DNA of 64,000 nt from Limisphaerales bacterium (lineage in GTDB: Bacteria; Verrucomicrobiota; Verrucomicrobiia; Limisphaerales; SXTU01), in contig WRPG01000001.1 of assembly GCA_009773355.1 (NCBI GenBank), forward strand, positions 186,001-250,000, given 5' to 3'. Positions within the stretch are counted from its first letter, which is position 1. Every line of letters starts with the position of its first letter. The position numbers and the translations under genes were made by a program. This document shows positions 22,111-24,589 of this stretch, piece after piece. A model generated the notes under the pieces. That model was not told the origin of the DNA, searched no databases, and saw nothing but the letters and a program-made list of their open reading frames with translations.

Positions 22111-23622
22111 ATGAAACCCGCTCTGTCCGTCCTGTTCGCCCTGCTACTGTCGCTCCTTGCGTCCGCGCCTGCCTATGCCGCCCAACTCCTCGCTGGCGTC
22201 GCGAAGGTGGACATCACAGACCGCGCGGCGGGGCCGGTCAACGACCCTTCCTACGTGAAAGCGCTCGTGCTCAAGGACGGCGCCACCACCGTCGTGCTCG
22301 TCACGGTGGACGCGGTGGCCATCGGCGGCATCGGGCGGATTGGGAATGATTACCTCGGGAAGGTGCGCGCGGAGTTGCAGCGGGAGCTGGGCATCCCGCC
22401 TGCGAGCGTGCTCGTCAACGCCAGCCATTGCCACAGCGTCGTGCGGCGCGACACGGACGCGCTCACGGTGCAGGCCGTGAAGGAGGCGGCGAAGAATCTC
22501 GTGCCCGTGCGCACCGGGGCCGGGCGGGGACGCGAGGACCGCATCATGGAGAACCGCCGCCTCAAGCTGAAGGACGGCAGCGAACTGGACCTCCGCCGCG
22601 CCTACGCGACGCCGCGCGACGAGGACGTGGCCAGCGTCGGCCCCGTGGACGCGGAGATTGGTCTGCTGCGGCTCGACCGCACGGATGGCCGGCCCTTCGC
22701 GCTGGTCTACAACTTCGCGTGTCATCCCATCCACGGCGTGCCGGCGGGCGGGAACACGGCGGATTTCCCCGGCTTCGCGTCGAAGGTCATCGAGGAGAAT
22801 TTCGGCGAGGGCGTGATGGCGTTCTTCGTGCAGGGCTGCGCGGGCGACATCAACCCGTCGCTCTACAAGGCCACGCAGCACCCGCACGACGCGGAGGCTT
22901 ACGGAAACCTGCTCGGCCTGAGCGCGCTGCGGGCGGCGCGCGGCATCAAGACGGGCGAGGCCAGCCCGTTGCGCGTCGTGCGCGAGACGGTGTCGCTGCC
23001 GCGCGCGGCGGACTATGAGCAGCGCATCGCGGCCATCGAGAGCGAGCAGGCGCGGCTGTTGAAGTCGTTTCGCGGCACGAGCCTGAACTTCAAGGCGTTC
23101 CTCCCGCTGTTCCTCCAACAAAAACTTTCGCCGGATTTCCCCGCGTATCCAAACTATGGCTACCTCCACGAGAAGGCGCAGGGCCGCGATGCCTTGGCTA
23201 AGCTCGACGCCGAGAACCGCGCGAACGTCGAGGCCTACCTGCGAAACATCCAGGCGATGGAGCGGCTCACGCACTTGCAGGTGAACGTCGCGCTGCTCAA
23301 GCGCCACCACGCCGAGGCCATCGCGGCGGGCACGCCGACGCTTGACGTCGAGATGTCCGGCCTGCGCGTCGGCGAGTTCGTGATGGTGACGTTCCCCGGC
23401 GAGCTGACGGTGGAGCTGGGGCTTGCCGTGAAGAAGCGCGCGCCGGGCAAGTTCAGCTTCGTGGCCGGCTACACCAACGGCTACCTCTTCTACCTGCCCA
23501 CCGAGGCGCAGCGGAAGAACCCCGGCTACGCGCAGGAAGATTGCGACTGCCTCGTGGCCCCGGAGTGGCGGAAGATTTTTGACGAGCGGACGGATGCGGT
23601 GCTGAAGCGGTTGAACCAGTAG
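22111..23622 (+). CDS. Secreted neutral/alkaline ceramidase-like protein
   Basis: Signal peptide; LLAGVAKVDITD...; VNASHCHS; VQGCAGDINPSLY; VMVTFPGELTVELG. Confidence 0.75.
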   Translation: MKPALSVLFALLLSLLASAPAYAAQLLAGVAKVDITDRAAGPVNDPSYVKALVLKDGATTVVLVTVDAVAIGGIGRIGNDYLGKVRAELQRELGIPPASVLVNASHCHSVVRRDTDALTVQAVKEAAKNLVPVRTGAGRGREDRIMENRRLKLKDGSELDLRRAYATPRDEDVASVGPVDAEIGLLRLDRTDGRPFALVYNFACHPIHGVPAGGNTADFPGFASKVIEENFGEGVMAFFVQGCAGDINPSLYKATQHPHDAEAYGNLLGLSALRAARGIKTGEASPLRVVRETVSLPRAADYEQRIAAIESEQARLLKSFRGTSLNFKAFLPLFLQQKLSPDFPAYPNYGYLHEKAQGRDALAKLDAENRANVEAYLRNIQAMERLTHLQVNVALLKRHHAEAIAAGTPTLDVEMSGLRVGEFVMVTFPGELTVELGLAVKKRAPGKFSFVAGYTNGYLFYLPTEAQRKNPGYAQEDCDCLVAPEWRKIFDERTDAVLKRLNQ

Positions 23623-23739
23623 CTCGACATTCCAATGTCGAGACTCCGACACCCGCCATCACGACAGAACGACGGAGTCTGAAATTGAACGCGAAGTAAC
23701 TTAGAATGACCAAGACTCGACATTGGAATGTCGAGCTAC
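23619..23739. repeat. REPIN-like palindrome pair, family A, upstream flank of RAYT
   Basis: GTAG-CTCGACATTCCAATGTCGAG (23619-23642) and CTCGACATTGGAATGTCGAG-CTAC (23716-23739); ends 8 nt before the RAYT start codon. Confidence 0.95.
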
Positions 23740-23747
23740 GGTGACCG

Positions 23748-24536
23748 ATGAAGAAACTCTCGCTGCCTAAGAGCATTCCCGCACGCCCCACCTTCCGTGG
23801 GGTTGATGTGGAGGAACTGTGGCTGGTGCCGGGGTATCGGCGGAACTTGCCGCACTTGCGCGTCGAGGGTGCGACTTACTTCGTGACCTTTCGACTCGCG
23901 GACTCCATCCCCGAGTCCGTCGCGAAGCAGTGGCATGAGGAGCGGGACTTCTGGTTGCGGGTGCATGGCGTGGACCCGGCGTGGGCGGAGTTCGACCCAA
24001 AGCGTTGGAGCGATGCCTACCAGGCCATCTCCATCGGCGAACGCCGGGCCTTCGAGCGCGAGCAGCAACGGCAGTTCTTGGTCGAGTTGGACAAGTGTCA
24101 CGGCAGTTGCCTGCTAGCGCAAGCCCACGGCATCGTCGCGCAGGCGTTGGAGTTCTTCCACGGCCAGCGCGTTTGGGTGGGCGACTACGTCGTGATGCCC
24201 AATCATGTCCACGTGTTGGCGCAGCCGTTTCCCGGCGTGCAACTCGAAGAGTGGCTGTATTCGGTCAAACGCTTCACGAGCACGGAGATGGGCAAGGACG
24301 CCGGACTGAACGCACACGCACTGATGCGTCAGGGACATCTGTGGCAGACAGAGTCCTTCGACCGCATCTTGCGCGGCGTCGAGGAACTGGCGCGCACGCG
24401 ACGATACATTGCGAACAACCCGGAAAAGCTGCGGCCCGGCACGTTTGCCCTGAAGCAAGCAGACTGGCTCGACGAGTATGCGCCGCCCGCTGGTAGCTCG
24501 ACATTCCAATGTCGAGTCGAGGAGCAACCAGCATGA
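23748..24536 (+). CDS. RAYT (REP-associated tyrosine transposase; IS200/IS605-like Y1/HUH family)
   Basis: YFVTFRLADSIP, VVMPNHVHVLAQP (HUH), LWQTESFDRILRGVEELARTRRYIANNPEKL (Y1 helix region); flanked by family A palindromes. Confidence 0.92.
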   Translation: MKKLSLPKSIPARPTFRGVDVEELWLVPGYRRNLPHLRVEGATYFVTFRLADSIPESVAKQWHEERDFWLRVHGVDPAWAEFDPKRWSDAYQAISIGERRAFEREQQRQFLVELDKCHGSCLLAQAHGIVAQALEFFHGQRVWVGDYVVMPNHVHVLAQPFPGVQLEEWLYSVKRFTSTEMGKDAGLNAHALMRQGHLWQTESFDRILRGVEELARTRRYIANNPEKLRPGTFALKQADWLDEYAPPAGSSTFQCRVEEQPA

Positions 24537-24589
24537 AACAGCCTCGCCGCTTACGACAACGGGTTCTCGACATTGGAATGTCGAGCTAC
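24493..24589. repeat. REPIN-like palindrome pair, family A, downstream flank; overlaps 3' end of RAYT CDS
   Basis: GTAG-CTCGACATTCCAATGTCGAG (24493-24516) and CTCGACATTGGAATGTCGAG-CTAC (24566-24589). Confidence 0.95.

What the first reader, a model, noticed from the sequence alone, without database searches (positions are those of the whole stretch)
23619..24589. RAYT transposase bracketed by two cognate REPIN-like palindrome pairs
Seen directly: ORF 23748-24536 has a Y1/HUH transposase signature (VVMPNHVHVLAQP; RTRRYIANNP). It lies between two elements of identical design: GTAG-CTCGACATTCCAATGTCGAG ... CTCGACATTGGAATGTCGAG-CTAC. Established knowledge: RAYTs recognise REP hairpins carrying a short conserved head (GTAG or GGAG in known cases) and often sit between them. 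A complete head-plus-palindrome pair on both sides suggests the mobilising unit for this repeat family.
Basis: partly seen in the sequence, partly recalled or inferred. Interest (0 to 1): 0.85.

Follow-up and report, generated by a model that had tools for sequence, protein, structure and literature searches.

The report
RAYT cassette bracketed by REP hairpin pairs
The window holds a single-copy transposase gene framed by two pairs of the DNA hairpins that are scattered about 200 times through the same genome, and in related bacteria the same kind of cassette sits in frame inside ordinary housekeeping genes such as DNA polymerase III, which my literature searches did not find described.

Summary
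RAYT ORF 23748-24536 lies between two head-to-head REP pairs (23619-23739, 24493-24589). GTAG+palindrome occurs ~200 times in the 6.16-Mb genome (reversed-sequence control 0), including 47 exact two-hairpin REPINs. The protein is a RAYT: NCBIfam REP_Tyr_transpos E=2.5e-15 (below its equivalog cut-off), Y1_Tnp above cut-off, HUH and Tyr intact, best PDB fold E. coli RAYT-REP complex 4er8. Of 294 genomes of the order, only two hold a close RAYT (90% aa), and only those two hold many of these REPs (185, 61; others at most 10). One clean empty site shows a REPIN inserting as a unit. Across 21 RAYT loci, RAYT identity tracks the flanking stem sequence (r=0.59, 0 of 1999 permutations).

So the locus is a new REP/RAYT family of a known kind. 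Following RAYT relatives led to something I found no report of: in this order the RAYT, often as REPIN-RAYT-REPIN, lies in frame inside DnaE, PriA, DinG, ClpB, AlaS, HsdR, SNF2 and UGPase-like genes. RAYT clades follow the host gene, catalytic residues persist, and 1737 long database proteins match a RAYT domain. In one DnaE the insert is REPIN-RAYT-REPIN, the window's architecture. Function of the fused proteins is untested.

The parts
23619..23642 (+). REP 1: GTAG head + 9-bp stem, 2-nt centre (CTCGACATT CC AATGTCGAG)
   Evidence: exact match; TAG 23620-23622 is also the stop codon of the upstream ORF
23643..23715 (.). 73-nt spacer of the upstream REP pair
   Evidence: 72-nt counterpart flanks the related RAYT in G046
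23716..23739 (-). REP 2, inverted partner of REP 1 (head-to-head pair)
23748..24536 (+). RAYT gene, 262 aa; HUH (H153, H155) and catalytic-type Tyr (Y220) intact
   Evidence: PF01797 above cut-off; NF047646 E=2.5e-15, 56.6 bits, cut-off 80; invariant residues; fold 4er8
24493..24516 (+). REP 3; read through in frame by the RAYT ORF (residues ...GSSTFQCRVEEQPA)
24517..24565 (.). 49-nt spacer of the downstream REP pair; holds the RAYT stop codon 24534-24536
24566..24589 (-). REP 4, inverted partner of REP 3
2105..2128 (+). REP of a dispersed REPIN of the same family
   Evidence: REPIN also present, decayed, at the orthologous site in G003
2157..2180 (-). Partner REP of the dispersed REPIN (28-nt spacer)
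22063..23622 (+). Flanking host gene (neutral/alkaline-ceramidase-like; name from sequence resemblance, not profile-tested), whose stop is the TAG of REP 1
   Evidence: syntenic in relatives
24646..25101 (+). Flanking host gene (IscU/SufU-like, in a suf cluster; name from sequence resemblance)
   Evidence: in G003, G006, G039 it follows the ceramidase-like gene after about 57 bp without RAYT

Best explanation
The locus is a REPtron: one RAYT (Y1/HUH single-strand DNA transposase) with its own REPIN family. Shown here: family membership, ~200 matching repeats in the genome, hairpin-preserving stem changes, insertion of a REPIN as a unit at one empty site, and RAYT-REP co-distribution. Inferred from E. 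coli and Stenotrophomonas TnpAREP work: the protein binds the folded single strand through GTAG and the hairpin, cuts beside it through a 5'-phosphotyrosine bond, and re-joins it elsewhere, seeding REPINs. In relatives the cassette (RAYT flanked by REP pairs) has also entered open reading frames and stayed in frame inside conserved housekeeping proteins, its REPs read as peptide linkers. I infer that this in-gene state protects the RAYT from loss, because frameshift or imprecise deletion would also damage the host gene.
For: Family. Copy number and pairing: (47 exact pairs with 12-35 nt spacers). Hairpin selection: 14 two-sided compensatory cells (4 kinds) among 230 monomers, partner REP unchanged. 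Unit insertion: the 66-nt REPIN of L059 is absent from the G010 site, flanks nearly joined, no target duplication visible. Co-distribution; exact copies 35/61 in RAYT-bearing G046 against 7/37 in genus relatives without a close RAYT, Fisher p=0.0003. Cognate stems: 21 of 30 RAYT loci have GT[AG]G hairpins within 250 bp against 0.2% in shuffles; Mantel r=0.59. In-gene cassettes.
Against: No activity shown. The protein falls below NCBIfam's equivalog cut-off (56.6 against 80 bits). No empty site could be aligned for the RAYT unit in the window, because the whole intergenic stretch differs from relatives. Near-identical REPINs in G046 sit inside a ~147-bp composite element, so some recent spread may be due to another enzyme. 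The host gene of nested RAYTs may be duplicated or inactive; this could not be tested. Only one REPIN empty site was clean; others were rearranged.
Confidence: 0.85

Rival explanations
1. It is an ordinary IS200/IS605-type insertion sequence whose subterminal hairpins happen to be repeated; the REPs are remnants of IS ends.
For: Same Y1 fold; IS608 and ISDra2 transposases are the next structural matches; weak IS200 profile hit.
Against: One copy of this RAYT in the genome, a distant second RAYT-like gene and one separate true IS200-type gene at C114; REP_Tyr_transpos outscores the IS200 model; best fold is the RAYT-REP complex; GT[AG]G heads as in published REPtrons.
Confidence: 0.04
2. The palindromes are host elements (for example terminators or binding sites) and the RAYT merely landed among them.
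For: Palindromes persist at low copy in genus members without a close RAYT; perfect stems could serve at the RNA level.
Against: High copy number only where the close RAYT is present; relatives' RAYTs are flanked by different stems that track RAYT similarity; decay of REPs without RAYT; REPIN absent from the orthologous site.
Confidence: 0.06
3. The repeats spread as part of a larger MITE moved by another transposase; the RAYT is a bystander.
For: In G046 five or six near-identical REPINs lie in a ~147-bp composite with arms TACTG...GACTCGTGCA / ...CAGTA; weaker arms exist in G000.
Against: Most REPINs in G000 lack recognisable arms; arms diverge while REPs stay exact; the REPIN at L059 is absent from G010 without any arm-like remainder; no transposase for these arms was identified.
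Confidence: 0.1
4. The cassette was moved between families (G000 and G046) by horizontal transfer together with pieces of host genes, rather than inherited. (This concerns its history and does not exclude the best explanation.)
For: G046 carries remnants of the ceramidase-like and iscU-like genes around its RAYT, mostly closer to window-genus copies than to its own intact copies; the empty intergenic sequence is shared by G039, G003 and G006.
Against: Four-fold-site identity of the RAYT (65%) is no higher than that of the suf genes (66-75%) between the two genomes, so no recent transfer; the remnant tree is short and weakly supported.
Confidence: 0.3

Closest known systems
REPtrons / TnpAREP (RAYT) with GTAG REPs (E. 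coli, Stenotrophomonas, Pseudomonas; PMC8266576, PMC6006769, PMC3733652)
   Same: Y1/HUH protein, GT[AG]G head plus hairpin, gene flanked by REP pairs, dispersed cognate REPs, near single copy
   Different: Longer protein (262 aa) with an extra helical stretch before the HUH core; perfect 9-bp stem with 2-nt centre; PVC superphylum. Subclass in the published scheme was not assigned
REPINs (PMC3116915, PMC8049555)
   Same: Two inverted REPs around a fast-changing spacer; ends conserved; compensatory changes; unit absent at an empty site
   Different: Stem, spacer length (mostly 25-28 nt); spacer orientation appears inverted at two orthologous sites (tentative)
GTAG REPs of Opitutus terrae (Verrucomicrobia) and in-frame REPs in replication/repair genes (PMC3733652)
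   Same: Same superphylum (PVC), same head, REPs read in frame inside genes such as uvrA
   Different: There only REPs are reported in frame; here whole RAYT genes are in frame inside DnaE, PriA, AlaS and others
Inteins
   Same: In-frame, sit in DnaE, helicases and other conserved ATPases; one SNF2 insert lies directly behind the Walker A motif where NCBIfam NF058636 'intein-prone helicase' ends
   Different: No splicing (Hint) domain was seen; the REP-encoded linkers remain in the predicted product; works through DNA hairpins
Rickettsia palindromic elements (RPE; cited in PMC3733652)
   Same: Palindromic repeats inserted in frame in protein genes
   Different: RPEs carry no transposase gene (own knowledge)

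Membership tests
RAYT / TnpAREP | Y1 transposase domain with HUH and downstream Tyr (Y-x-x-x-NP) | tested here: met
   PF01797 32.4 bits, cut-off 23; H153, H155, W199 and Y220 identical in 30 of 30 loci
RAYT / TnpAREP | RAYT-specific profile above curated cut-off | tested here: not met
   NF047646 56.6 bits, cut-off 80, E=2.5e-15: related, but outside that equivalog as NCBI draws it
RAYT / TnpAREP | Fold of TnpAREP | tested here: met
   pLDDT 86 model; best PDB match 4er8, E=1.2e-5, only hit below 0.001
RAYT / TnpAREP | Single-strand REP binding and cleavage | not testable with these tools
   biochemical
GTAG REP | GT[AG]G head on a hairpin, many copies | tested here: met
   ~200 copies; head GTAG in 202 of 230 monomers
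REPIN | Two inverted REPs at set spacing acting as one unit | tested here: met
   47 exact pairs; unit absent at one empty site
REPtron | RAYT gene flanked by its cognate REPs | tested here: met
   order-wide
IS200/IS605 insertion sequence | Multi-copy autonomous element with tnpA inside paired ends | tested here: not met
   one copy of this gene in the genome
Intein (considered for nested relatives) | Splicing domain | tested here: not met
   no such domain among the Pfam/NCBIfam hits of 8 nested ORFs

The most novel reading that the evidence does not exclude
REPIN-RAYT-REPIN cassettes are a class of protein-embedded mobile element. They insert in frame into conserved, often essential genes (dnaE, priA, dinG, clpB, alaS), use REP hairpins as both DNA recognition sites and peptide linkers, persist because the host gene cannot afford to lose the frame, and are exchanged at fixed sites: an intein-like life style without splicing. 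The window's intergenic cassette is a free-standing form of it.
Probability: 0.5. Interest if true: 0.9.

Novelty: new variant of a known kind. Interest (0 to 1): 0.68.

Why it matters
For the window alone: a new, clean REP/RAYT pair outside Proteobacteria, with a RAYT-bearing and several RAYT-poor close relatives, which makes the question of whether RAYTs keep REPINs alive directly comparable. For the wider pattern: transposase domains kept in frame, with catalytic residues, inside DNA polymerase III, PriA or alanyl-tRNA synthetase would be a new answer to how RAYTs persist for so long as near single-copy genes, and would give natural fusions in which REP processing could be tied to replication or repair.

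Tried and rejected
GTAG as a preferred gene stop codon: long ORFs enter REPIN arms in the three frames about equally (20/17/16), so the TAG stop at the upstream gene is incidental. Spacer as pre-existing target DNA: rejected, the spacer is absent at the empty site and spacers share a weak common consensus (PWM 342 against about 140 for shuffles). First Mantel test gave r=0.05 because minus-strand loci were translated on the wrong strand; corrected. Recent horizontal transfer of the RAYT: not supported by synonymous divergence. Searches without result: IMG/VR for the 20-mer, plasmids for the protein, PDB by sequence. Structure of a DinG-RAYT fusion: low confidence (pLDDT 58, pTM 0.37), used only to note that most of the RAYT stretch scores 64-85 and the REP-encoded linkers 20-45. 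Literature searches for RAYT nested in frame: nothing found, but only open-access PMC text is covered.

Full report
What is in the window. Four copies of GTAG-CTCGACATTCCAATGTCGAG stand as two head-to-head pairs around an ORF of 262 codons; a third pair lies at 2105-2180. Six exact palindromes are present where 0.01 is expected. The RAYT ORF reads through the first hairpin of the downstream pair and stops in its spacer, and the GTAG of the left pair supplies the upstream gene's TAG stop. A genome-wide test showed that this stop usage is not a general preference.

The protein. Pfam Y1_Tnp is above cut-off. NCBIfam REP_Tyr_transpos has E=2.5e-15 but lies below its curated cut-off. H153, H155, W199 and Y220 are identical in 30 loci; the two histidines, W199 and Y220 are also invariant among 49 aligned homologues. 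The AlphaFold2 model (pLDDT 86) matches 4er8, E. coli RAYT bound to a REP hairpin, as the only hit below 0.001; IS608 and ISDra2 transposases follow. So membership in the RAYT superfamily is well supported; membership in NCBI's equivalog as drawn is not.

The repeats. The own genome (6.16 Mb, 162 contigs) holds 98+102 places at up to 3 mismatches, control 0, and 47 exact REPINs with 12-35 nt spacers, mostly 25-28. Ends are invariant while spacers differ strongly, though they share a weak consensus; diverse spacers are already described for REPINs (PMC8049555). Among 230 monomers from several genomes, stem changes include both-sided compensations (ATT/AAT to TTT/AAA, CTC/GAG to CCC/GGG and CGC/GCG) while the partner REP is unchanged, so the single hairpin is what is kept.

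Distribution. In 294 genomes of the order only G000 and G046 have a RAYT with 89-100% identity, the next being 50%, and only they have many of these REPs (185 and 61; all others at most 10). G046 is CAMAUZ01, a MAG deposited as Akkermansia muciniphila. Copies in genus relatives are fewer and more decayed: 7/37 exact against 35/61 in G046, p=0.0003. G000 shares several REPIN sites with relatives, so many copies are old. At L059 the whole 66-nt REPIN is missing in G010, with flanks nearly joined and no visible duplication. The RAYT of G046 lies at the corresponding position behind sufBCD between remnants of the same two host genes. Its four-fold-site identity to the window's (65%) is not above that of the suf genes (66-75%), so a recent transfer is unlikely.

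Wider RAYT-REP coupling. Of 30 RAYT loci in the order, 21 carry a GT[AG]G-headed perfect hairpin within 250 bp against 0.2% in shuffled flanks; heads are GTAG 31 and GTGG 14. RAYT identity and stem identity correlate (r=0.59, 0 of 1999 permutations; r=0.55 without G046).

Where the evidence led. The table lists many RAYT matches in open frames of 600-1564 aa. Reading them showed the RAYT in frame inside other genes. Of 39 such ORFs, 29 have at least 100 aa of host on both sides: DinG/YoaA-type helicase 7, UGPase-like 5, PriA 5, DnaE 3, ClpB 2, SNF2 helicase 2, AlaS 2, HsdR 1, others 2. Profiles confirm the hosts: ClpB, AlaS and DnaE pass NCBIfam cut-offs in spite of the insert. Against solved structures the DnaE ORF L301 matches Taq DnaE 5-880 with residues 7-869 and resumes at 886 with residue 1120. 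The PriA ORF L298 matches PriA 3-218 and resumes at 219. In L301 the insert is REPIN-RAYT-REPIN with two identical 64-nt GTGG REPINs read as VARASRPCEQSKELTGETPVPL: the architecture of the window. Hairpins flank both sides in 19 of 39 ORFs.

Nested RAYTs are not debris. In pairs of genomes the RAYT part is 67-91% identical in protein with four-fold-site identity of 41-86%, broadly as in the host parts. 28 of the 29 both-sided cases and 114 of 120 database hits keep HUH and Tyr motifs. A tree of 54 RAYTs needs 13 changes of host label against 29.9 in shuffles; HsdR, DnaE, ClpB and AlaS each form one clade across genomes. A search limited to long proteins found 1737 with a RAYT-like domain, including DnaE, DinG, AlaS, MetH, DUF1156 and debranching-enzyme proteins (hosts read from precomputed Pfam accessions), some named for Planctomycetota, Methylococcaceae or Microcoleus, on contigs up to 4.08 Mb. 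Some carry two RAYTs. DnaE has two insertion sites, and some proteins carry only a REPIN at the first site. Host and RAYT trees of 26 DnaE fusions conflict (r=0.20), which points to repeated insertion or exchange. In the window's own genus two genomes have AlaS-RAYT, and the second RAYT of G000 continues in frame from a hydroxyproline-epimerase-like ORF.

Mechanism. Shown by others: TnpAREP binds single-stranded REP through GTAG and hairpin features, cleaves at CT beside it via Tyr-5'-phosphate and transfers strands (PMC8266576). Inferred here: this RAYT does the same on its own hairpin. The single-strand route would explain clean insertion without duplication. Where a REP pair lacks stop codons in one frame, insertion into a loop of a protein gene can be tolerated, and a later cassette can arrive through RAYT action or recombination between REPs. 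Only in-frame arrivals would survive in essential genes.

Known or new. REPtrons, REPINs, GTAG REPs in Verrucomicrobia and in-frame REPs in repair genes are known (PMC3733652, PMC3116915, PMC6006769). [quoted passage not shown] the DnaE case argues that whole cassettes can be inserted. I found no description of RAYT genes nested in frame in housekeeping genes, within an open-access library only. The window locus itself I rate as a new member of a known kind (interest about 0.35 on its own); the in-gene cassettes make the whole a new variant.

Limits. Genomes are drafts; host-gene copy number, expression and activity were not tested; gene names for the window's flanks rest on sequence resemblance; the identity of the order was not looked up.

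Noticed in passing
L301, L298, L300, L297, L303, L321, L326, L331 and others (L296-L334): RAYT genes nested in frame inside DnaE, PriA, DinG, UGPase-like, ClpB, SNF2, HsdR and AlaS ORFs, often flanked by GT[AG]G hairpins read as linkers; 1737 long database proteins match a RAYT-like domain.
   Followed up: yes
G000:C27:165254-165592 (L335): Second RAYT-like domain of the window's genome continues in frame from a hydroxyproline-epimerase-like ORF (599 aa), with no REP hairpin found close to it.
   Followed up: partly
L208, L206, L205, L211, L218 (G046), L055 (G000): REPINs inside a ~147-bp composite with outer inverted arms TACTG...GACTCGTGCA...GAGTGAC / ...CAGTA; two G046 copies share an identical 28-nt spacer.
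   Followed up: partly
L051 against L228; L076 against L230: Spacer best aligned in inverted orientation at orthologous REPIN sites, as if the interior had flipped between the inverted REPs; few cases, other readings possible.
   Followed up: partly
L061 against L267 (G003): REPIN collapsed to a single hairpin at the orthologous site, consistent with deletion between the two near-identical palindromes.
   Followed up: no
G046:C118:17868-19511 (L178): RAYT surrounded by fragments of the ceramidase-like and iscU-like genes, while intact copies of both lie on other contigs.
   Followed up: partly
CAMAUZ010000118.1 (L089): 7.9-Mb MAG deposited as Akkermansia muciniphila; size and relationship to the window's order suggest the name is wrong.
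   Followed up: no
P0002, P0009, P0011, P0012, P0070: Stand-alone RAYT homologues are named 'type I restriction enzyme R subunit' in public sources, possibly carried over from HsdR-RAYT fusions.
   Followed up: no
P0126, P0128, P0147, P0148, P0149: Single proteins with two RAYT HUH motifs, among them an alanyl-tRNA synthetase and DUF1156 proteins.
   Followed up: no
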